In this document: in pieces, positions 18,435 through 30,988 of the stretch
Layout of the letters: each line of letters begins with the position of its first letter
How positions within the stretch are numbered: position 1 is the stretch's first letter
NCBI GenBank assembly: GCA_046760505.1
Contig: JBHIEG010000019.1
Coordinates: 1-37,148, forward strand
Length of the DNA: 37,148 nt
Reading direction: 5' to 3'
Origin: CAYFZR01 sp046760505 [NCBI: Candidatus Hydrothermarchaeota archaeon]
Lineage (GTDB): Archaea; CAYFZR01
Translations under genes and position numbers: made by a program
Notes under the pieces: model-generated
The model's input: only the letters and a program-made list of their open reading frames with translations
The model's database searches: none
Told to the model about the DNA's origin: nothing

Positions 18435-19748
18435 TTGAAAAATAGATCAAAACTAGCGATAGCAGCCTTGGTAATAACGAGCGTCATTCTATCGGGTTGT
18501 GTAGCCCCAACGGAAGTGCCAGGAAAAATAAAAATAGGCATAGTGGCTCCATTGACCGGAAAAGCAAGTACAACCGGAGATGATATGTGGAACTGTGCTC
18601 AACTAGCTGCTGAGGAGATAAATAAGGCAGGAGGAGTTTTTGTAAAGGAAAAAAATGCTAAACTTCAAATTGAACTAATCCCGGGGGACACAGAATCCAC
18701 CGTAGATGGCGGAGTCAAGGCGGTAACTAAACTCATAACGGAAGACAAAGTTGACATTTTGGTTGGAGGATTTTCCAGTGCAATAACTCTAGCTGATCAA
18801 AAAATAGCAATTGAACACAACGTTCCTTTCGTCATAACCGGTGCCTCTGCCCCGCAGGTAACAAGGAGAACTGACCTCGATACCTCATACATGTTCCACC
18901 ACTGTCCTACAACGGATGATTATCCTGAAGAGACTTTACTTTTCGTTAATGAAGTAATTAAGCCTGCTATTGATAAAAAGTTTGGATTTCCGAAGGATAG
19001 AAAGTTAAGGCTGGCAGTCCTGTATCAGGATAGTGGATATGGAAGAGGAGTGAAGGCCGGCATTGAGAAGGCGATAGAGAAGCATAATCTACCCATTGAA
19101 ATAGTCGCTTCAGAAGCATTCAAAATGGGAGAAACAGATTTTCGAGCACCACTTACTGTAATAAAGGCGGCTAAACCAGACGTAGTTTATCCTGCTGGTT
19201 TCCTGAATGAGCAGGCCCCAATCGTGATCCAGGGAAGAAAAGATGTTGGTCTAGATACGATTTACTTATCTGTGGAGTGCAACGACGATCCAGATTACTA
19301 CAAGGCCGTAGGAAAATGGGGTGAATACTCAATTCAAGAAAGCCGATTTAGCCCGTACACAACTCCAGCCGGAACCATTAAAGATTCTGTAACTAAGTTC
19401 AAGAGCAATTATAGAGCCAAATACGGCAAAGAGCCAAGCATGATGGGAGCCTCTACCTATGAGGGAGTTTACATTGCAGCAAAGGCGATTGAAATTGCAG
19501 GTAGCTTGGATAAAACAAAGATTCGCGAAGCGCTAACAACTCTAGAAGTACCTCAGATGGTTGAAGCTATGCAGGGTGGAAAAATTAAATTCTCACCTGA
19601 TTACAGAGAAACCAAGTTCCAGCTCTACATGGAACAACTATTCTGGAACGAAACCTTGGGAGAATGCAGGCCGAAGATAGTATGGCCGGATAATCTAAAA
19701 GAAGCTGACTTCGTACTTCCGGAGTGGTACAAACCCGGAAGCCCATAA
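18435..19748 (+). CDS. livK: ABC transporter substrate-binding lipoprotein, branched-chain amino acid type
   Basis: A 437-residue periplasmic-binding-protein-like receptor of the LivK/HAAT family. The signal peptide ends in the lipobox VILSGC, so C22 is the lipidated residue. The mature protein starts with the family pattern KIKIGIVAPLTGKASTTG, then a Leu/Ile/Val-binding type I fold with LAAEEINKAGGV, DKVDILVGGFSSA and RLAVLYQDSGYGRG. The start is TTG 18435, set by a strong AGGAGGTG. It leads livH and livM, with a T-rich stretch after its stop that may reduce transcription into the permeases. The ligand may be a branched-chain or aromatic amino acid, or an aryl acid given the ior/paaK neighbours. 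Confidence 0.92.
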   Translation: MKNRSKLAIAALVITSVILSGCVAPTEVPGKIKIGIVAPLTGKASTTGDDMWNCAQLAAEEINKAGGVFVKEKNAKLQIELIPGDTESTVDGGVKAVTKLITEDKVDILVGGFSSAITLADQKIAIEHNVPFVITGASAPQVTRRTDLDTSYMFHHCPTTDDYPEETLLFVNEVIKPAIDKKFGFPKDRKLRLAVLYQDSGYGRGVKAGIEKAIEKHNLPIEIVASEAFKMGETDFRAPLTVIKAAKPDVVYPAGFLNEQAPIVIQGRKDVGLDTIYLSVECNDDPDYYKAVGKWGEYSIQESRFSPYTTPAGTIKDSVTKFKSNYRAKYGKEPSMMGASTYEGVYIAAKAIEIAGSLDKTKIREALTTLEVPQMVEAMQGGKIKFSPDYRETKFQLYMEQLFWNETLGECRPKIVWPDNLKEADFVLPEWYKPGSP

Positions 19749-19750
19749 TC

Positions 19751-19768
19751 TTTATTTTTTTTATTTTT
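19751..19768 (+). terminator. T-rich tract after livK
   Basis: The stretch TTTATTTTTTTTATTTTT directly follows the livK stop. Archaeal RNA polymerase terminates at T-runs, so this may end part of the livK transcripts and make the receptor more abundant than the permeases. No hairpin precedes it. Confidence 0.4.
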
Positions 19769-19787
19769 CGTTGTTGGATGTGTGAAT

Positions 19788-20669
19788 ATGTCATTTGATG
19801 CCGGGATATTATTTCAAGTTGTTTTTTGGGGTCTTTATGCTGGTTGTATTTATATACTCCTAGCCACAGGATTGACCATTATTTTTGGTGTTATGAAGAT
19901 AGTTAACTTTGCACACGGAGAACTGCTAATGCTAGGATCCTATGTAACATTCTGGGCTGTTACTTTGTTAGGAATCAACCCATATCTTGCTATGATATTC
20001 TCGATGATAACGCTAGGAATCCTAGGGATTGGAATTGAAAGACTTTGTTTCAGGCCAATTCTAGGTACAGGCAAGCTTAATGAAATTTTTCTGAGTTTAG
20101 GGTTGATTTTCTTCTTCCAAAATCTGGCTGCAAAGTTATGGGGCGCAGATTTTAGGAGCATACATAGTCCTTATGAGTCCATATTGATTCCCATAGGGTC
20201 CGCGAATCTTCCATTTGACTATCTGGTAATTATGATAGTTACTTCCTTTATACTTTTGATTCTTCACATTTTTCTTAAAAAAACTTCAATTGGAAGAGCA
20301 ATCCGGGCTACAAGTCAAAATAGGAAAGCCGCAATGCTCATGGGAATAAATGTAGAGCGCGTGGATATGCTTACCTTTGGTTTGGGCTCTGCATTGGCAG
20401 CCGCTGCGGGAAGTTTATGGGTTGTAGGGGGACTCTCGTTCAATCCTTACATGGGGACTACTCCAGCGATTAAGGCATTTGCAGTCATAATTCTGGGTGG
20501 ATTAGGAAGTATTCCAGGCGCTATAGCTGGTGGGCTTACATTAGGTCTTGCAGAGAATATAGCCGCTTACTTAGGGGGCGGTGCTTGGAAAGACGCAACA
20601 TCTTTCGCTATTTTAATTGCTGTACTGGTAATAAGACCGACCGGCATATTTGGTGAGAGGGAGGAATGA
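19788..20669 (+). CDS. livH: Branched-chain amino acid ABC transporter permease LivH
   Basis: A 293-residue inner-membrane permease of the LivH family, with about eight hydrophobic helices. The N-terminal GLYAGCIYILLATGLTIIFGVMKIVNFAHGELLMLG is the family hallmark. RAIRATSQNRKAAMLMGINV is the cytoplasmic coupling segment that contacts the ATPase, and VIILGGLGSIPGAIAGGLTLGLAE is the conserved C-terminal segment. ATG 19788 is preferred over GTG 19782. Its TGA overlaps the upstream ATG of livM in the form ATGA. Confidence 0.93.
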   Translation: MSFDAGILFQVVFWGLYAGCIYILLATGLTIIFGVMKIVNFAHGELLMLGSYVTFWAVTLLGINPYLAMIFSMITLGILGIGIERLCFRPILGTGKLNEIFLSLGLIFFFQNLAAKLWGADFRSIHSPYESILIPIGSANLPFDYLVIMIVTSFILLILHIFLKKTSIGRAIRATSQNRKAAMLMGINVERVDMLTFGLGSALAAAAGSLWVVGGLSFNPYMGTTPAIKAFAVIILGGLGSIPGAIAGGLTLGLAENIAAYLGGGAWKDATSFAILIAVLVIRPTGIFGEREE

Positions 20670-20674
20670 TCTTT

Positions 20675-21628
20675 ATGAAAATAGATAAGAGACTTTACCT
20701 GGGTTTAATGGCTCTTTTAACAGGACTCCTTGCACCCTTCATCACCAATATGAGTCCTCATATAATAAGAGTTCTGACCATAATGCTTATTTTCATCATG
20801 TTCTCAACTGCATGGAACCTATTGACATACTCAGGGCAAGCATCATTGGGTCACGCTGCATTTTTTGGTATTGGAGGATATACATCGGCTTTAATCGCAA
20901 AGAATTTAGGCCTGCCCCCTTTTTTTACCGTTTTGATTGGTGGGTTATTAGCAGGCATCGCGGGAATCCTAGTTGGACTTACATGCATTAGGTTAAGAGA
21001 ATGGTTTTTGGCCATGGTTACATTCGGTTTTGCGATAATTGCGCAACCTTTAGCAGGTATACAATTTGAGAGATGGACCGGGGGTTGGGATGGTATGTCT
21101 GCACCACGGTTTGTTGCGGCTTCAAATCCTCTTTACTACGTTTATGAATACTACATAATCCTCGCCTTTACCCTAGGGGTGATAATTTTAGCATATGTTA
21201 TAATGAAATCGAAAATCGGAATTGCATTTTCCGCGATTAGAGAAAACGAATTAGAGGCGAAAACCATAGGAATAGACGTTACAAAATATAAACTTCTTGC
21301 TTTTGCAATAAGTACATCAATAGCAGGAGTTGCAGGAGCCTTTCAAACCCATAATTTTTCTTACATAACTCCGGGGATATTTGGCATTGATATCTCTTTT
21401 TGGCCTGTAATTTACTGCATCAGCGGAGGGCTGAATACCCTGGAAGGTCCGATAATAGGTACAATAGTAATAACATTTATATGGGAGGGTCTTAAGACCC
21501 TGGGCTGGACATTTGAACGTTTTATCCTTATAGGCATTATATTGATACTGGTGGTCATATTTTTACCTAAGGGCTTTGTCTCTGTTTTAAAAAAACCTAA
21601 GGAAATAAAAACTTACATTCCAAGATAG
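20675..21628 (+). CDS. livM: Branched-chain amino acid ABC transporter permease LivM
   Basis: A 317-residue LivM-type permease with eight or nine membrane helices. It shows SGQASLGHAAFFGIGGYTSAL, the coupling segment FSAIRENELEAKTIGIDV, and the ISGGLNTLEGPIIG motif near the C-terminus. Two ATGs are in frame, 20666 and 20675; GGGAGG at 20659-20664 is correctly spaced only for 20675. It pairs with livH to form the membrane channel. Its 3' end overlaps the convergent livF by 16 bases, so the ATPase genes are not part of this transcript. Confidence 0.93.
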   Translation: MKIDKRLYLGLMALLTGLLAPFITNMSPHIIRVLTIMLIFIMFSTAWNLLTYSGQASLGHAAFFGIGGYTSALIAKNLGLPPFFTVLIGGLLAGIAGILVGLTCIRLREWFLAMVTFGFAIIAQPLAGIQFERWTGGWDGMSAPRFVAASNPLYYVYEYYIILAFTLGVIILAYVIMKSKIGIAFSAIRENELEAKTIGIDVTKYKLLAFAISTSIAGVAGAFQTHNFSYITPGIFGIDISFWPVIYCISGGLNTLEGPIIGTIVITFIWEGLKTLGWTFERFILIGIILILVVIFLPKGFVSVLKKPKEIKTYIPR

Positions 21629-22317
21629 GCTTCCTTTATGTGATCATTTTTCAGCAGTTCCTTTCCCTTTCCTTCCATGATGATTCTACCTGATTCTAGC
21701 ACATATCCTCTATCAGCAAGTTCTAGGGATTGGAACACGTTTTGTTCAGAAAGTAAAATTGTTACCCCTTCCCTATTAAGCCTCTCAAGCTGTCTATAGA
21801 CCTCATGAACCATTATGGGTGCCAGCCCGAGAGATGGCTCATCCAAAATGAGGAATTTGGGTCTTAACATTAAACTTCTTGCTATTGCCAGCATTTGTTG
21901 TTCTCCACCGCTCAGGGTACCAGCGAGCTGGTTTTTCCTTTCTTCTAGCACTGGAAAGATCTCAAAAACCCAATCAAGAATTTCTTTGACTTTCCGATCA
22001 TCTTTGATAGTGTATGCGCCCAAAAGGAGATTTTCTATTACTTTCAGGTTGGGAAAGAGGCTTCTACCCTCTGGAACTAAGGAAATTCCTTTTTTAACAA
22101 TGCTATAGGTTGGTAATTTGCTTATCTCTTCGTTGAGGAATTTTATTCGCCCGGTAGTAGGTTTAAGAATTCCCAGAAGAGTATTAATTATTGTGGTCTT
22201 CCCAGCGCCGTTGGACCCTATTATGGAGACAACTTCTCCCTCGTAAACTCTGAATGAAACGCCCCAGAGGACCTGAATGTTGCCGTAGTGTACATCTATG
22301 TTCTCGACCTCTAACAA
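21613..22317 (-). CDS. livF: Branched-chain amino acid ABC transporter ATP-binding protein LivF
   Basis: A 234-residue ABC ATPase of the LivF type. Walker A is GSNGAGKTT, the Q-loop follows in SLVPEGRSLFPNL, the signature is LSGGEQQMLAIAR, Walker B is LILDEPSLGL, and the H-loop region is degenerate (LLSEQNV, with glutamine and asparagine where many ABC proteins have histidine), as is common in LivF. The start is TTG 22317 with GGAGG 8 bases upstream. It is the second gene of the minus-strand pair livG-livF, separated from livG by about 27 bases. Confidence 0.92.
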   Translation of the reverse strand: MLEVENIDVHYGNIQVLWGVSFRVYEGEVVSIIGSNGAGKTTIINTLLGILKPTTGRIKFLNEEISKLPTYSIVKKGISLVPEGRSLFPNLKVIENLLLGAYTIKDDRKVKEILDWVFEIFPVLEERKNQLAGTLSGGEQQMLAIARSLMLRPKFLILDEPSLGLAPIMVHEVYRQLERLNREGVTILLSEQNVFQSLELADRGYVLESGRIIMEGKGKELLKNDHIKEAYLGM

Positions 22318-22344
22318 ATTTAATTCCTCCGAATCCGAGTCAAT

Positions 22345-23073
22345 TCACCATAAAAATCTCTCTCCCAAGTAGGATTCAATAACTCTCTCATCAGTAGAAA
22401 CCTCCTTTGGAGTTCCCTCCGCTATCTTTTCTCCCTGGCTAAGTACTACTATTCTATCCGAAACTCCCATGATTATCCTCATTATGTGCTCAATCATAAG
22501 TATTGTGATGCCTCTCTTCCGTATTTTGTGAATTAACTTCACAGCACTGGCTCCTTCCGTAGGATTTAATCCTGTCGTGACTTCATCTAAGAGCATGAGA
22601 TCAGGATCTGTTGCTAATGCTCTTGCCAGTTGAATGCTTTTCAACTCAACAAAGTTTAAGTTACCTACCGGAAGATCGACCTTTTCGTTTGGAAATCCTA
22701 TAAATTCTAAGATCTCGTAGGCTCTTTCTCTTGCTTCTTCCTTACTGATTTCCTCAGATCTTCCAAAAAGGGATCCCAACATAACGTTTTCAATAGCACT
22801 CATCTCCGTAAATGTCTGAACTGACTGAAAAGTTCTTGCAATTCCTTTTTTACAGATCTGATTTGGCTTCAGTCCGCTGATTTTTTCTCCCTTAAACAAT
22901 ACCTCGCCTGAATCAGGCCGGTATATTCCGCTTATTATGTTCACCAACGTAGTCTTGCCTGCGCCATTTGGTCCTACTAGTCCGATTATTTCTCCCTCAT
23001 TTATTTTGAGGGAAACATTGTTTACAGCTATAAGTCCACCAAACCTCTTTGTAACACCTTTAACTTCGAGCAA
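22345..23073 (-). CDS. livG: Branched-chain amino acid ABC transporter ATP-binding protein LivG
   Basis: A 242-residue LivG ATPase. Walker A is GPNGAGKTTLVN, then the family's GIARTFQSVQTF Q-loop and the H-loop MIEHIMRIIM. The ABC signature is divergent: LNFVELKSIQLARAL replaces the usual LSYGQQ form, and Walker B continues LLDEVTTGLNPTE rather than LDEP. From memory a LivG subgroup has this ELK-type signature, so I read it as a variant, not a defect. GTG 23082 opens the frame, but it lies inside GGTG; TTG 23073, 6 bases after GGTG, is the better start and matches the family N-terminus. Confidence 0.9.
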   Translation of the reverse strand: MLEVKGVTKRFGGLIAVNNVSLKINEGEIIGLVGPNGAGKTTLVNIISGIYRPDSGEVLFKGEKISGLKPNQICKKGIARTFQSVQTFTEMSAIENVMLGSLFGRSEEISKEEARERAYEILEFIGFPNEKVDLPVGNLNFVELKSIQLARALATDPDLMLLDEVTTGLNPTEGASAVKLIHKIRKRGITILMIEHIMRIIMGVSDRIVVLSQGEKIAEGTPKEVSTDERVIESYLGERFLW

Positions 23074-23247
23074 CCAGCGCACCTTTCTTCAAAATTTACT
23101 AACTTAAAATAAAAAATTTTCTGTGCATTTCATTTGGAGAATAATCTTTTTTTAGCCCTACTTTTAATTCAGAATACATGAGCCAGAGCATTTTTCTGCG
23201 TGAAGTTTACATATGTGATCTTAAGAAGTTAGGAAGGGGAAGAGAAA

Positions 23248-25068
23248 ATGGCAAGACCAGACATTTTGAATGGGGAAACTGGAGAGAAGGTATTTTTGCT
23301 TGGAAATGAGGCAATAGCAAGAGGCGCTATTGAGGCTGGCGTAAAAGTTGTGGCTTCATATCCCGGGACTCCGTCTTCTGAAATTCTCGAATCAATAGCA
23401 CGCGTAGCCAAGGAACTCAATATCCACGCTGAGTGGAGTGTGAATGAAAAAGCTGCCTTAGAAATTGCTGCCGGCGCCTCATATTCTGGAGTAAGGGCGA
23501 TGGCATCAATGAAACACGTTGGAGTTAACGTTGCATTGGATGCCCTAGTTACACTCGCCTATACAGGCGTTAGAGGTGGACTGGTTATCGTTTCGGCCGA
23601 TGATCCTTCTGCTCATAGCTCACAAAACGAGCAGGACAATAGACTCATTGCAAGATTTGCCAAAATATTTTGCCTCGAGCCTTATGACCCACAGAGCGCT
23701 AAGGATTACACTAAAAAAGCCTTTGAAATTTCAGAGAGATTCGAAATACCTGTTATGCTCAGAACAACCACAAGGGTAAGTCATGCGAGAGGAGACGTAG
23801 AGTTCGGTGAAGTTATCCACCAAAAAAAGGCAAATTTTAAGAAAGATCCTAAGAGATTTGTTTGCGTGCCAGCACATTCCAGACCGCTTCATGCAAATCT
23901 TAACAAAAAACTTAAGGACATGGAGAAATATTCAGAGGAAAGCGAGCTCAATTACTCAGAAATCAACGATAAACTTGGTGTTATCTCGTCTGGTGTTTCT
24001 AGGAACTATGTGAGAGAAGCTCTCCATCTACTAGGATTAAAGGCATCTGTATTCGAAATAGGTATAACCCACCCCCTTCCAAGGAAAAGGCTTATAGATT
24101 TTCTGAACAATGTTGAAAGAGTTTTGATTGTCGAAGAACTCGAACCTTACATCGAAGAATATGTAAAATCCCTTGGTACCGGAATTAAGATAGATGGTAA
24201 ATCTCTATTGCCAAGAGAATTCGAATTAAGCGTGGATATAGTCAAAAAAGCCATATCCGGTTTAGTAGGCATAAGCCATAAGGAGAGTAAAATAGATGTA
24301 ATTGATATCCCCTCAAGACCTCCTGTAATGTGTGCAGGATGCCCGCACAGGGCTGTTTTCTACGCTCTAAAGAAAATAACAAAGAAGAAGATTTATTCCG
24401 GTGATATAGGGTGCTATACCTTGGGTGTATCAGAGCCTCTAAAGACTATAGACACCTGTCTATGCATGGGCGCTGGAATAAGTCTCGGAGCAGGATTGTA
24501 TCACGCTGGAGTAGAAGATAAAATTGTAGCAATAATCGGAGATTCAACATTTTTACATGCAGGAATGACAGGTTTGCTAAACGCGGTATACAACAATGCA
24601 AACATTACCATCGTCATATTGGATAATATGGGCTCTGCCATGACCGGGCACCAGCCCCACCCGGCGGTTGGAGTTACCGCAACCGGAGAAAAAACTTTTA
24701 AGGTAGATTTCGAGCAGATTGCAAAGGCGCTTGGTGCAGGTTTTGTTGCAAAAATAAAACCATTTGATCTCGAAGATTCTATAGAAACCCTTAGAAAGGC
24801 ATTAGATTTTAATGGCGTTTCAGTGGTCATCGCAGAAGAGCCCTGTGCATTGGTAGCGAAAAAGCTTAACCTGTGGAAGAGCCCTTATCGTGTTGATAGA
24901 GATAAATGCGATGGATATCTCTGCCATGAATGTAGAGCATGTGTATTTTTGATCGACTGTCCAGCGATAAATTGGGAAAATGGGAAGGCAAAAGTAATAA
25001 GGGAACTTTGTAGTGGATGCGGCTTGTGCTTCAAGATATGTCCAAACAATGCGTTTGTGGTGGATTAA
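23248..25068 (+). CDS. iorA: Indolepyruvate ferredoxin oxidoreductase, alpha subunit
   Basis: The large subunit of an enzyme that converts aryl pyruvates to aryl-acetyl-CoA with reduction of ferredoxin (or the reverse). Domains in order: pyrimidine-binding domain (EKVFLLGNEAIARGAIEAGV), a TPP-binding domain near the centre with CAGCPHRAVFYAL and SGDIGCYTLGVSEPL, then GDSTFLHAGMTGLLNAVYN for Mg-TPP binding. The last 60 residues are a ferredoxin domain for two [4Fe-4S] clusters (CHECRAC...C and CSGCGLCFKICP). At 606 residues it is normal. It diverges from livG and is followed by iorB one base after its stop. GGAAGGGG lies upstream of the ATG. Confidence 0.95.
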   Translation: MARPDILNGETGEKVFLLGNEAIARGAIEAGVKVVASYPGTPSSEILESIARVAKELNIHAEWSVNEKAALEIAAGASYSGVRAMASMKHVGVNVALDALVTLAYTGVRGGLVIVSADDPSAHSSQNEQDNRLIARFAKIFCLEPYDPQSAKDYTKKAFEISERFEIPVMLRTTTRVSHARGDVEFGEVIHQKKANFKKDPKRFVCVPAHSRPLHANLNKKLKDMEKYSEESELNYSEINDKLGVISSGVSRNYVREALHLLGLKASVFEIGITHPLPRKRLIDFLNNVERVLIVEELEPYIEEYVKSLGTGIKIDGKSLLPREFELSVDIVKKAISGLVGISHKESKIDVIDIPSRPPVMCAGCPHRAVFYALKKITKKKIYSGDIGCYTLGVSEPLKTIDTCLCMGAGISLGAGLYHAGVEDKIVAIIGDSTFLHAGMTGLLNAVYNNANITIVILDNMGSAMTGHQPHPAVGVTATGEKTFKVDFEQIAKALGAGFVAKIKPFDLEDSIETLRKALDFNGVSVVIAEEPCALVAKKLNLWKSPYRVDRDKCDGYLCHECRACVFLIDCPAINWENGKAKVIRELCSGCGLCFKICPNNAFVVD

Positions 25069-25069
25069 A

Positions 25070-25669
25070 ATGAAAACAGGCTCGAAGACAGATATATTAA
25101 TAGCAGGCGTAGGTGGACAGGGAATACTTCTTACCGCAAACATGATAGGTCGCACAGCGGTAAAGATGGGTTTCAAAGTTAGAGGCGCTGAAACCCATGG
25201 CATGGCCCAAAGGGGGGGGAGCGTGGTTTCCCATATCAGAATCGGAAATATCGCAAGTCCGCTCATTCCTCAAGGGGAATGTGACTTTATGCTTGGTTTC
25301 GAGCCTGTCGAAGCGCTTAGAAACGTCTATTTTTTGAATAAAAACGCTAAGGCAATAGTTAATAGAGAAATGATCCCGCCTGCATCACTAAGAGACCCGT
25401 GGAAGTATCCAAGGTTAGAGGATGTGATTAAAAATCTCTCCGAATACTGCGAGTTAATTCTCCTAGATGCATCGTCTATTGCTTCAAAAACAGGAAATCC
25501 ACTCTTCATAAACATGGTCATGCTTGGAGCACTTTCCTTATTTCTGGAGTCTATCATCCCTGAAGAGAAACTCAGGGAAACGATAGAAGAAATAATACCA
25601 AAAAAGACGGTTGATGCTAACCTAAAGGCCTTTGACCTCGGAAGAGAAGAGGTGAGAAAAAAACTCTGA
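25070..25669 (+). CDS. iorB: Indolepyruvate ferredoxin oxidoreductase, beta subunit
   Basis: The 199-residue gamma-domain subunit that completes IorAB and contacts CoA and TPP. It starts TDILIAGVGGQGILLTANMIGR and contains the conserved AETHGMAQRGGSVVSHIRIG motif. The start is ATG 25070, one base after the iorA stop; a longer frame reaches back to 25013 but overlaps the iorA ferredoxin coding region. Translational coupling to iorA is likely. The next gene starts 9 bases after its stop with its own ribosome site, so it belongs to the same operon. Confidence 0.94.
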   Translation: MKTGSKTDILIAGVGGQGILLTANMIGRTAVKMGFKVRGAETHGMAQRGGSVVSHIRIGNIASPLIPQGECDFMLGFEPVEALRNVYFLNKNAKAIVNREMIPPASLRDPWKYPRLEDVIKNLSEYCELILLDASSIASKTGNPLFINMVMLGALSLFLESIIPEEKLRETIEEIIPKKTVDANLKAFDLGREEVRKKL

Positions 25670-25678
25670 GGTATCTTT

Positions 25679-26773
25679 ATGGTGACAGCGTTTGTAGGGC
25701 TTCCCTGTCAGATTCAAGCGTTGAAAAAGGCTAATATCATGTTAAATAAGTTCAAGGATACTTTTTCAATTGGACTCTTCTGCAGGGAAAACTGGTGCTA
25801 CTCTTGCATGCGCGCGTTAGTGGAAGGAGACCATGGCATAGACCTCAGTTCTGTTAAAAAGTTCGAGATAAAAGGAAACAGTATGCTAATAAGCTATAAC
25901 AGAGAGGTAATTGAGATACCACTATCCGAATCAAGGCCATATGTAAGATTATGCTGCCAAGTTTGCTTAGATTTTTCTTCTGAACTTTCAGACGTTTCCG
26001 TAGGATCATTAGGCTCGCCTAACGGCTGGTCAACCCTTATTCTACGAACAGACTATGGAATTAAAATAGTGGAGGGCGCAAAAAAAGAGGGTTACATCGA
26101 AGTAAGATCAATAAAAGATTCCGGAATCAGATCAATACGTAATATATCCCGAGAAAAAAAGGAAGAAAGTCTAAAAGAGGCTAAAGTGATGGAAAAGAGT
26201 GGAATAAATGTTCCTCACATCCTTACGAAGGATGATATAGATCTGGAAGATTTTAAATACTATTCTAAAGATAAAAATTTTTCTGATTTGGAATTTAATG
26301 TCGTAGATAATGGCTTCTGCGTTTCATGCGGTACATGCGCTGCTATTTGCCCATATGACGTCCTCGAATTGCCCAATGAAAGACCTCGTTTATTAAAAGC
26401 ATGTCCAAGTGGATGCAACCTTTGTTATCTCGCTTGTCCAAGAACCTCTTTCCAGATACCTGCAATAGAAGAGAAAATTGAATTTGCCTCTAGAATCAGG
26501 GATGAAGACCTTGGTTATTATGCAAAAATCCTAGCAGCAAGAACCAAGGTTAGTTCCATTAAAGGACAGGACGGCGGCGTAGTGACCTCTCTCTTAATGT
26601 ATGCTTTAGACTCAGGGCTGATAGAAAGTGCAGTTACCGTAACTCATGGAGACATGCCTTGGAAACCAAAGGCTACAATCGTAAAAAATAAGATAGAACT
26701 GCTCAAAACTTCTGGAAGTATTTACTCGGTGTCCACTACAATGCAGAGTTTAAGAGACTCTTTTATTAAATAA
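25679..26773 (+). CDS. FrhB/FdhB-family iron-sulfur flavoprotein with circularly permuted domain order
   Basis: The family normally runs ferredoxin domain, FrhB N-domain (QDGGVVT), FrhB C-domain (VGTPCQI). Here residues 1-140 are the C-domain: VGLPCQIQALKK with C10, GLFCRENWCYSC with C35/C40/C43, CCQVCLDFSSELSDVSVGS. Residues 214-253 hold two cluster motifs (C214-C217-C220-C224, C242-C246-C249-C253). Residues 280-364 are the N-domain (GQDGGVVTSLLMYALDSGLI, SGSIYSVSTTMQSLRDSF), ending where the C-domain would begin. TGAGGT at 25667-25672 is a proper ribosome site 6 bases before the ATG, so this looks like an expressed gene, not a remnant. Relatives bind FAD and pass electrons between ferredoxin, F420 or other acceptors; here it may serve IorAB. 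Confidence 0.85.
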   Translation: MVTAFVGLPCQIQALKKANIMLNKFKDTFSIGLFCRENWCYSCMRALVEGDHGIDLSSVKKFEIKGNSMLISYNREVIEIPLSESRPYVRLCCQVCLDFSSELSDVSVGSLGSPNGWSTLILRTDYGIKIVEGAKKEGYIEVRSIKDSGIRSIRNISREKKEESLKEAKVMEKSGINVPHILTKDDIDLEDFKYYSKDKNFSDLEFNVVDNGFCVSCGTCAAICPYDVLELPNERPRLLKACPSGCNLCYLACPRTSFQIPAIEEKIEFASRIRDEDLGYYAKILAARTKVSSIKGQDGGVVTSLLMYALDSGLIESAVTVTHGDMPWKPKATIVKNKIELLKTSGSIYSVSTTMQSLRDSFIK

Positions 26774-28808: not shown

Positions 28809-29084
28809 TCAGGAAGTTGAGGTCTTTTTCAGCAATTGCTTACAGTTTTCTGTTAATCGATAGAACTTAGTTCTCTTATGATCTGTTTTCACTTCTTCTA
28901 TCAGTCCTTCCCTCTTTAAAAGTTCTATTTCATACTTTACAGTGCCCCACTCCATGCCTATTCTGTTAGAAATCTGGTTTGTATTCAGTAGACCGAATTC
29001 CGAATTGTTTAGTGCCTTAAGTATCTTCAATCGGGTCTCTCCACCTCTACTCAGAAGGACTATTTTTGATCTGATGTGATCCAA
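28809..29084 (-). CDS. Winged-helix transcription regulator, paralog 2
   Basis: A 91-residue paralog of the regulators on either side, with the same QISNRIGMEWGTVKYEIELL helix-turn-helix and a KRTKFYRLTENCKQLL wing. It carries one cysteine near the C-terminus that the others lack. The start is TTG 29084 with GGGGAGA upstream. Its upstream region, 29122-29160, matches that of paralog 3 in nearly 40 bases. A 61-base segment of its N-terminal half (28964-29024) is identical to paralog 3. Confidence 0.88.
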   Translation of the reverse strand: MDHIRSKIVLLSRGGETRLKILKALNNSEFGLLNTNQISNRIGMEWGTVKYEIELLKREGLIEEVKTDHKRTKFYRLTENCKQLLKKTSTS

Positions 29085-30715: not shown

Positions 30716-30988
30716 TTAATCTGATATTCTTTTGGATAATTCCTTCCCTATATCTGTCAACGTGTAAAATTTGGTTCGGTGGTGTGATTCAACCTCTTCT
30801 ATCAGTCCTTCTCTCTTTAAAAGTTCTATTTCATACTTTACGGTACCCCACTCCATGCCTATCTTGTTAGAAATCTGGTTTGTATTCAGTAGACCGAATT
30901 CCGAATTGTTTAGTGCCTTAAGTATTTTGGCTCGGGTCTCTCCACCTCTGCTCACGAGAAGAATTACCTTGGGTCTTATCGGATCCAT
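30716..30988 (-). CDS. Winged-helix transcription regulator, paralog 3 (mosaic)
   Basis: A 90-residue paralog of the two regulators at 28-29 kb, with QISNKIGMEWGTVKYEIELL and a TKFYTLTDIGKEL wing. Its DNA is a mosaic: 30785-30850 is identical to paralog 1 over 66 bases, while 30865-30925 is identical to paralog 2 over 61 bases. The switch falls between 30851 and 30864. The start ATG 30988 follows GGGGGAATGTT. Upstream lie a 7-base inverted repeat with an 11-base spacer and the promoter block shared with paralog 2. Gene conversion or unequal recombination among the copies is the simplest account. Confidence 0.88.
   Translation of the reverse strand: MDPIRPKVILLVSRGGETRAKILKALNNSEFGLLNTNQISNKIGMEWGTVKYEIELLKREGLIEEVESHHRTKFYTLTDIGKELSKRISD

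What the first reader, a model, noticed from the sequence alone, without database searches (positions are those of the whole stretch)
25679..26773. FrhB-family protein with circularly permuted domain order in the ior operon
Seen: this ORF starts with the family's C-domain (VGLPCQIQALKK, CCQVCLDFSSELSDVSVGS), continues through two ferredoxin motifs, and ends inside the N-domain (GQDGGVVTSLLMYAL ... SLRDSFIK). In FrhB/FdhB proteins the order is ferredoxin, N-domain, C-domain. Joining the present C-terminus (SLRDSFIK) to the present N-terminus (VTAFVGLPC) restores the normal continuous sequence, so the cut is exactly at the domain junction. The gene has a well-spaced ribosome site and follows iorB by 9 bases, so it looks expressed. 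Inference: a real circular permutation, made by tandem duplication and trimming, giving an electron-transfer subunit dedicated to indolepyruvate ferredoxin oxidoreductase.
Basis: partly seen in the sequence, partly recalled or inferred. Interest (0 to 1): 0.82.

Follow-up and report, generated by a model that had tools for sequence, protein, structure and literature searches.

The report
Circularly permuted F420-reductase in ior operon
This archaeal gene encodes an electron-transfer protein whose domains run in rotated order; the rotation is genuine, old and shared by many archaea, and here the protein probably carries electrons from aromatic amino-acid breakdown to the coenzyme F420.

Summary
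ORF 25679-26773 (364 aa) matches PF04432 at residues 4-147, ferredoxin motifs at about 208-256 and PF04422 at 285-358: C-domain, ferredoxin, N-domain. No in-frame N-domain lies upstream. It is not an artefact or a local oddity: collinear relatives occur in 19 of 23 genomes of a related archaeal phylum and 123 of 151 genomes of another, apparently methanogenic, phylum, some on single contigs of 1.2-2.9 Mb. The 52 examined are cut in the same linker, some with extensions, and one origin is not rejected (p-AU 0.416). The rotation is already in print for one member: a 2013 eLife figure legend notes it for the M. marburgensis F420-dependent glutamate synthase subunit. Neighbours in the 52 loci: 2-oxoacid:ferredoxin oxidoreductase 17, glutamate synthase 15, Mtd 9, molybdopterin oxidoreductase 5, none 5, IOR 1 (the window). 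One relative is fused to PorB. Best reading: an F420-reductase module taking electrons from indolepyruvate oxidoreductase. That partnership rests on this operon alone: 8 of 23 related genomes have IorA, none beside a permuted gene. No usable structure model was obtained.

The parts
25679..26773 (+). Permuted FrhB-type protein, 364 aa, order C-domain / 2x[4Fe-4S] ferredoxin / N-domain
25688..26119 (+). FrhB_FdhB_C domain (PF04432), residues 4-147, with Cys10, Cys35, Cys93 and Cys96 at the positions of the FrhB [4Fe-4S] ligands Cys104/134/192/195
   Evidence: ligand list from PMC3591093; correspondence read by me from the alignment (M. barkeri FrhB) and the spacing of the ligand numbers
26300..26446 (+). 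Ferredoxin-like segment, residues 208-256; cysteines 214/217/220/224 and 242/246/249/253
26531..26752 (+). FrhB_FdhB_N domain (PF04422), residues 285-358, with the GQDGGVVTSLLMYAL stretch that corresponds to the FAD-pyrophosphate helix of FrhB
25668..25672 (+). GAGGT, likely ribosome-binding site overlapping the iorB stop, 6 bases before the ATG
   Evidence: read from sequence
23248..25068 (+). iorA, indolepyruvate:ferredoxin oxidoreductase alpha subunit (TIGR03336, 810.5 bits, cut-off 650.9)
25070..25669 (+). iorB, beta subunit (TIGR03334, 208.8 bits, cut-off 205.8); ATG at 25070 is likelier than the listed GTG at 25013
   Evidence: start choice is inference

Best explanation
The gene encodes a member of a permuted (C-domain, ferredoxin, N-domain) branch of the FrhB family of FAD / [4Fe-4S] F420 reductases. 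The two FrhB halves, joined in the opposite order through the ferredoxin, fold into the usual F420-reductase unit. In this organism it is the electron-accepting subunit of indolepyruvate:ferredoxin oxidoreductase: electrons from oxidative decarboxylation of aryl-pyruvates pass from the IorA clusters to its ferredoxin domain, then to the C-domain [4Fe-4S], FAD and F420. Shown: domain order, conservation, retained cluster and FAD-helix residues, operon position. Inferred: fold, cofactor content, complex with IorAB, use of F420, direction of electron flow.
For: Domain order. 27 columns are invariant among 20 diverse permuted proteins chosen from the 52, including Cys10/35/93/96 and the ferredoxin Cys214/217/220/253. 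Collinear relatives: 19 of 23 genomes, 123 of 151, 38 of 394 in a broad sample that includes the 19. Tight operon with iorAB. Permuted relatives sit beside 2-oxoacid:ferredoxin oxidoreductase genes in 17 of 52 loci; in 16 of these the porC match begins within 6 bases of the stop. In one draft genome the protein is fused in frame to PorB, the TPP-binding subunit. Precedent: standard-order FrhB-type subunits bound to CO dehydrogenase and formylmethanofuran dehydrogenase reduce F420 (PMC11493965, abstract and passages). Passing electrons from a ~-500 mV 2-oxoacid couple to F420 (~-340 mV) is downhill (potentials given for pyruvate in PMC9012536, section read).
Against: The IOR link is seen once: 8 of 23 genomes of the phylum have IorA (E <= 1e-60) and none has a permuted gene beside it. 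The window protein's sister pair is next to mtd, not a 2-oxoacid oxidoreductase. No whole genome is held for the window, so a separate por operon with its own copy cannot be excluded, nor F420 biosynthesis checked. A purified pyruvate oxidoreductase did not use F420 as donor or acceptor (reported in PMC9012536). The single-sequence structure prediction failed (mean pLDDT 37.4), so the fold is untested.
Confidence: 0.6

Rival explanations
1. A free-standing ferredoxin:F420 oxidoreductase that happens to be co-transcribed with iorAB and serves several ferredoxin-linked enzymes rather than binding IOR.
For: Neighbours of the branch vary widely (2-oxoacid oxidoreductase, glutamate synthase, Mtd, molybdopterin oxidoreductase, none). 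A soluble FpoF with ferredoxin:F420 oxidoreductase activity is cited for Methanosarcina mazei (PMC9012536 passage).
Against: In-frame fusion to PorB and the near-constant placing directly before porC (16 of 17) suggest tight partners.
Confidence: 0.25
2. The two domains are joined wrongly by assembly, or the gene is a decaying fragment.
For: None found; the window has no reads to map.
Against: The same order at the same linker occurs in independent genomes, including single contigs of 1.2-2.9 Mb. The frame is uninterrupted and the cluster ligands are kept.
Confidence: 0.01
3. A fusion of the C-half of one FrhB gene to the ferredoxin-N half of a neighbouring, different FrhB gene, not a permutation of one gene.
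For: Adjacent standard-order pairs exist: L164 and L165 each hold two complete ferredoxin-N-C genes in a row, and L099 a C-half gene followed by a complete one. Losing the stop between such genes and trimming would give C-ferredoxin-N.
Against: Quick trees of the two halves each need only 2 label changes and force 1, so both halves look like one branch; they do not show which standard gene each half came from.
Confidence: 0.12

Closest known systems
F420-dependent glutamate synthase F420 subunit, MTH193 / MTBMA_c06440 (ADL58239); apparently FGltS(II)-alpha of PMC3448663
   Same: Same permuted order: the eLife 2013 legend (PMC3591093) says the C-terminal 83 residues align with the FrhB N-terminus and the N-terminal 182 with the FrhB C-terminus. 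It falls in the same tree group as the window protein if the G281/G347 loci are these genes, which I infer from contig lengths and the GltB neighbourhood.
   Different: About 40% identical to the window protein (G281, G347); partner is split glutamate synthase, not IOR.
Permuted FrhB heading porCDAB operons in the phylum of G001
   Same: Same architecture; 16 of the 17 por-linked proteins (15 from this phylum, one from G029) share a 20-row clade with the window protein (99/95); partner is also a 2-oxoacid:ferredoxin oxidoreductase.
   Different: Partner is POR-type, not IOR; 39-48% identity. The 17th, the PorB fusion L098 from G045, is 36% identical and lies outside the clade.
FrhB6 of ANME-1, clustered with pyruvate ferredoxin oxidoreductase (PMC9012536, section read)
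   Same: FrhB family protein tied to a 2-oxoacid oxidoreductase; F420 reduction proposed.
   Different: The section says nothing of domain order; I did not examine these sequences.
CODH zeta subunit and FwdI of Ca. Ethanoperedens (8riu, 8rja; chain assignment inferred)
   Same: 8riu_B is the best PDB match; a ferredoxin plus F420-reductase unit giving an oxidoreductase F420 as acceptor, shown biochemically (PMC11493965 passages).
   Different: Standard order ferredoxin-N-C.
FdhB of F420-dependent formate dehydrogenase
   Same: Same three parts.
   Different: Order N-C-ferredoxin: by profile in L151, and in L152 and L153 by N and C profiles plus cysteine motifs read in the tail. FdhB, FpoF-type and the permuted type thus show all three rotations; homology of the FdhB ferredoxin was not tested.

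Membership tests
FrhB/FdhB family of F420 reductases | PF04432 and PF04422 both above cut-off | tested here: met
   130.5 and 71.3 bits against cut-offs 23.3 and 22
FrhB/FdhB family of F420 reductases | N-domain before C-domain | tested here: not met
   C-domain first; 48 standard-order relatives for contrast. Pfam defines the family by domain content, so it is filed as a permuted branch, not as FrhB itself.
FrhB/FdhB family of F420 reductases | Four Cys ligands of the [4Fe-4S] cluster (FrhB Cys104/134/192/195) | tested here: met
   Cys10/35/93/96, invariant in 20 permuted proteins; ligand list from PMC3591093
FrhB/FdhB family of F420 reductases | Binds FAD and reduces or oxidises F420 | not testable with these tools
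   Needs biochemistry; the FAD-helix motif is kept
Permuted (C-ferredoxin-N) FrhB branch including the GltS subunit | C-ferredoxin-N order with the cut in the N/C linker | tested here: met
Permuted (C-ferredoxin-N) FrhB branch including the GltS subunit | Groups with the other permuted proteins in a tree | tested here: met
   Inside the 50-row permuted clade (88/92, not starred); one clade of all 52 not rejected, p-AU 0.416
F420-dependent glutamate synthase (FGltS II) | GltB-type partner beside the gene | tested here: not met
   No GltB match near the gene in the window
Indolepyruvate:ferredoxin oxidoreductase operon | IorA and IorB equivalogs above cut-off | tested here: met
   TIGR03336 and TIGR03334
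Indolepyruvate:ferredoxin oxidoreductase operon | Accessory FrhB-type gene is a regular operon member | tested here: not met
   No permuted match near iorA in 8 of 8 loci of the related phylum; iorB follows iorA in 7, the eighth contig ends about 1 kb downstream

The most novel reading that the evidence does not exclude
The C-ferredoxin-N proteins form one ancient branch of F420 reductases that archaea use as a plug-in cassette, making different ferredoxin-linked enzymes (pyruvate-type and indolepyruvate oxidoreductases, glutamate synthase, a Nap-like molybdenum enzyme, an Mtd-linked system) run on F420. The window shows the first F420-linked indolepyruvate oxidoreductase, and the free C-terminus created by the permutation is what allows fusion to the TPP subunit.
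Probability: 0.4. Interest if true: 0.6.

Novelty: new variant of a known kind. Interest (0 to 1): 0.42.

Why it matters
It shows that the F420-reductase sequence exists as a natural circular permutation in most genomes examined of one archaeal phylum of apparent methanogens and of a second phylum, where the papers I saw treat such genes simply as FrhB or FdhB homologues. If the partners are real, F420 rather than ferredoxin would be the acceptor for several 2-oxoacid oxidations, which changes reconstructed electron budgets of uncultured archaea. A homologue exists in Methanothermobacter, so the fold and the reaction can be tested directly.

Tried and rejected
Misassembly or pseudogene: rejected by the conserved order in many independent genomes. 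Tandem duplication leaving duplicated linker at both ends: the N-terminal extension of the 487-aa form scored little better than shuffles against the standard linker profile (L061: 24 of 200 shuffles reached it); low counts were seen in four related Mo-cluster proteins (L034, L035, L067, L069: 5-22 of 200), which is weak over 52 rows; the first attempt failed on a program option. Structure: AlphaFold2 on the single window sequence gave mean pLDDT 37.4 and was not used for a fold search. Viral and phage collections: no relative. Plasmids: 8 records with a match; the best 5 were fetched and all are standard ferredoxin-N-C, the other 3 were not checked. Single-protein scans of genome contigs: no relative for the permuted protein, three for IorA. 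Hits at G114, G629 and G639 that cross stops are adjacent standard-order genes, not permuted. Rows dropped: L099 from the permuted set; seven loci (L002, L031, L047, L099, L116, L122, L143) from the half-trees. Limits of absence: at most 5 candidates per genome were scored, 13, 8 and 10, with cut-offs of 1e-35 to 1e-42 in the last three, so diverged members could be missed. Of the permuted matches I examined neighbourhoods only for the genomes already fetched. Naming the phylum of G001: a name look-up of the record title found nothing, so it is left unnamed. One search listed L156 on the wrong strand; one search replaces it.

Full report
What is there. Pfam places FrhB_FdhB_C at residues 4-147, ferredoxin-type motifs at about 208-256 and FrhB_FdhB_N at 285-358. 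NCBIfam gives coenzyme F420 hydrogenase beta subunit models as the best matches, below their whole-protein cut-offs and in two stretches. Against solved structures the halves match one chain in swapped order: for 8riu_B, query 200-352 aligns to residues 8-161 and query 4-175 to 179-351. In the chains whose two halves were printed the N-domain precedes the C-domain; I saw no solved permuted member. The frame opens 9 bases before the ATG and the window holds no second FrhB fragment, so nothing is missing upstream.

It is conserved. An IorA search led to one archaeal genome, G001. In the 23 held genomes of its phylum, 19 contain at least one stop-free match spanning the window protein in its own order; G013, G014, G019 and G023 have only matches in two pieces. 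In a sample of 394 relatives 38 genomes have such a match: those 19 and 19 others, one of which (G196) is flagged with a stop although its frame of 365 codons is open; G114, whose match crosses a stop between two genes, is not counted. In the phylum of G281 it is 123 of 151 at E <= 1e-35, each best match spanning at least query 30-342. In two other phyla it is rare: 0 of 227 once two stop-crossing hits are set aside and 1 of 196, with cut-offs that could miss diverged members. Carriers include single contigs of 1,751,377, 1,853,160, 1,767,403 and 1,243,342 bases. From recall, not from a call, these lengths are those of Methanothermobacter thermautotrophicus Delta H, Methanobrevibacter smithii, Methanosphaera stadtmanae and Methanothermus fervidus; that the phylum is methanogenic rests on this and on the glutamate-synthase literature below. 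Misassembly cannot explain this distribution.

One cut, perhaps one origin. My own profiles sorted 100 FrhB-family ORFs into 52 permuted and 48 standard; the 52 are all the stop-free collinear matches plus the window. In the standard ones 5-21 residues (median 10) lie between the N and C profile matches; in most permuted ones the chain ends 1-9 residues after the N-domain and the C-domain begins within a few residues of a start codon, so the cut is in the same helix-strand linker. Exceptions are the 487-aa forms, with about 30 extra residues in front and about 90 behind, L028 with 12 behind, two ORFs cut by contig ends (L033, L036) and the PorB fusion. In a tree with all proteins put in one order, 50 of 52 permuted rows form one clade (88/92, short of the program's star) and two long-branch rows, L072 and L098, are unresolved. 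Only 7% of bootstrap trees have all 52 on one side of a branch, but holding them together is not rejected (p-AU 0.416). This does not prove one origin. Quick trees of each half alone need two changes and force one.

Neighbours. In the 52 permuted loci, tblastn found 2-oxoacid:ferredoxin oxidoreductase genes in 17, glutamate synthase in 15, mtd in 9, a molybdopterin oxidoreductase cluster in 5, ior in 1 (the window) and none in 5, one of which (L064) ends at a contig edge. Pfam confirms the representatives: POR, Fer4, POR_N/PFOR_II, TPP_enzyme_C, MTD, Molybdopterin, multihaem cytochrome, GATase, GXGXG and Glu_synthase. In L098 the permuted protein continues in frame into a TPP_enzyme_C domain, directly after porC, porD and porA matches; the contig ends inside it and this is one draft genome. 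The window protein's sister pair (L011/L012) is beside mtd. IorA (E <= 1e-60) is present in 8 of 23 genomes of the phylum at 61-64% identity; none lies near a permuted gene by position, iorB follows iorA in 7 of the 8 loci, and no permuted match lies within the 0.8-1.5 kb held behind iorA. In several the gene after iorB is something else. So the IOR pairing is so far seen only in the window.

How it probably works. The four cysteines that bind the FrhB [4Fe-4S] cluster (104, 134, 192, 195; PMC3591093 passages) correspond to Cys10, 35, 93 and 96, all in the C-domain and invariant in 20 aligned permuted proteins. The FAD-pyrophosphate helix of FrhB (27GIVTGLLAYAL) corresponds to about residues 300-310 in the N-domain. 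The active site is thus built from both halves, which the permuted chain links through the ferredoxin. Electrons would run from IorA clusters to the ferredoxin, to the C-domain cluster, FAD and F420. Precedent in standard order: F420-reductase subunits bound to CO dehydrogenase and formylmethanofuran dehydrogenase, with measured F420 reduction (PMC11493965 abstract and passages). Reducing F420 (about -340 mV) from a 2-oxoacid couple (about -500 mV, given for pyruvate) is favourable and would favour oxidation; the same section reports that a purified pyruvate oxidoreductase did not use F420 (PMC9012536 section 31). The fold, cofactors, complex and direction are inferred; the only structure job was unusable.

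What is already known. [quoted passage not shown] PMC3087415 (passages) lists the gene as MTBMA_c06440 / MTH193 and says proof by purification and sequencing remains. PMC3448663 (passages and section 11) calls the F420 subunit of FGltS(II) an FdhB homologue that departs in sequence from Fsr-N. So the rotation is in print for one protein. Searches of the open-access library: FrhB with 'circular permutation', 0 papers; F420, 'circularly permuted' and hydrogenase, one paper whose title concerns domains of unknown function in marine metagenomes (listing only); permuted/FdhB/F420/domain architecture, 3 papers with unrelated titles (listing only); 'F420-dependent glutamate synthase', 5 papers, of which I saw passages of all five; indolepyruvate, oxidoreductase, F420 and FrhB, 3 listed and not opened. 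In what I saw there is no description of the permuted branch as a family or of an IOR pairing; unopened papers, supplements and subscription journals may hold one.

Three rotations. FdhB-like ORFs run N, C, then ferredoxin-type cysteines (L151 by profile; L152 and L153 by N and C profiles and cysteine motifs read by eye); FpoF/Fsr-type ones run ferredoxin, N, C; the permuted ones run C, ferredoxin, N. All three rotations of one cyclic order therefore exist in archaea. Whether the FdhB ferredoxin is homologous was not tested.

Lineage of the window. No genome is held for it. Its MCM helicase has its six best matches of 394 genomes in the G001 phylum, at 53-56% identity, but other genomes are nearly as close (G352 55%, G126 54%) and 9 of the 23 gave no match at 1e-200. 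It is a distant member or neighbour of that phylum, not more than that.

Verdict. Observation confirmed; interpretation partly supported. A conserved, partly known permuted F420-reductase branch, here with a new neighbour.

Noticed in passing
L060, L062, L063, L067, L069 (e.g. L060:3812-11358): A permuted FrhB lies against a NapD-like gene in a cluster with a molybdopterin oxidoreductase and, where the contig goes on, a multihaem cytochrome; in L060 two Fer4/Fer4_5 proteins lie between: a possible F420-linked molybdenum enzyme.
   Followed up: partly
L058, L061, L065, L066, L068, L070, L071: A permuted form of about 487 aa with an N-terminal extension and a ~90-aa C-terminal tail sits directly before mtd, whose product itself uses F420 (recalled); the reason for the pairing is unclear.
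   Followed up: partly
L098:5060-6667: Permuted FrhB fused in frame to the TPP-binding PorB subunit after porC-porD-porA; truncated by the contig end.
   Followed up: yes
L099, L164, L165: Adjacent FrhB-type genes: two complete standard-order genes in a row in L164 and L165, a C-half gene before a complete one in L099; loss of the stop between them would give a C-ferredoxin-N stretch.
   Followed up: partly
window:12107-14740 (-) and 18435-23082: Two phenylacetate-CoA-ligase-like genes with an ACT-type gene, and branched-chain amino-acid ABC transporter genes, flank the ior region and fit aromatic/branched amino-acid catabolism (by eye; two of them checked).
   Followed up: no
window:28090-28362, 28809-29084, 30716-30988 (-): Three similar ~90-aa winged-helix-like proteins in 3 kb (by eye).
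   Followed up: no
window:26976-27818: A 109-aa hydrophobic protein without a Pfam match followed by a Rieske protein.
   Followed up: no
window:14865-18308: hemE-, hemH- and hemG-like genes in a row in an archaeon (named by eye).
   Followed up: no
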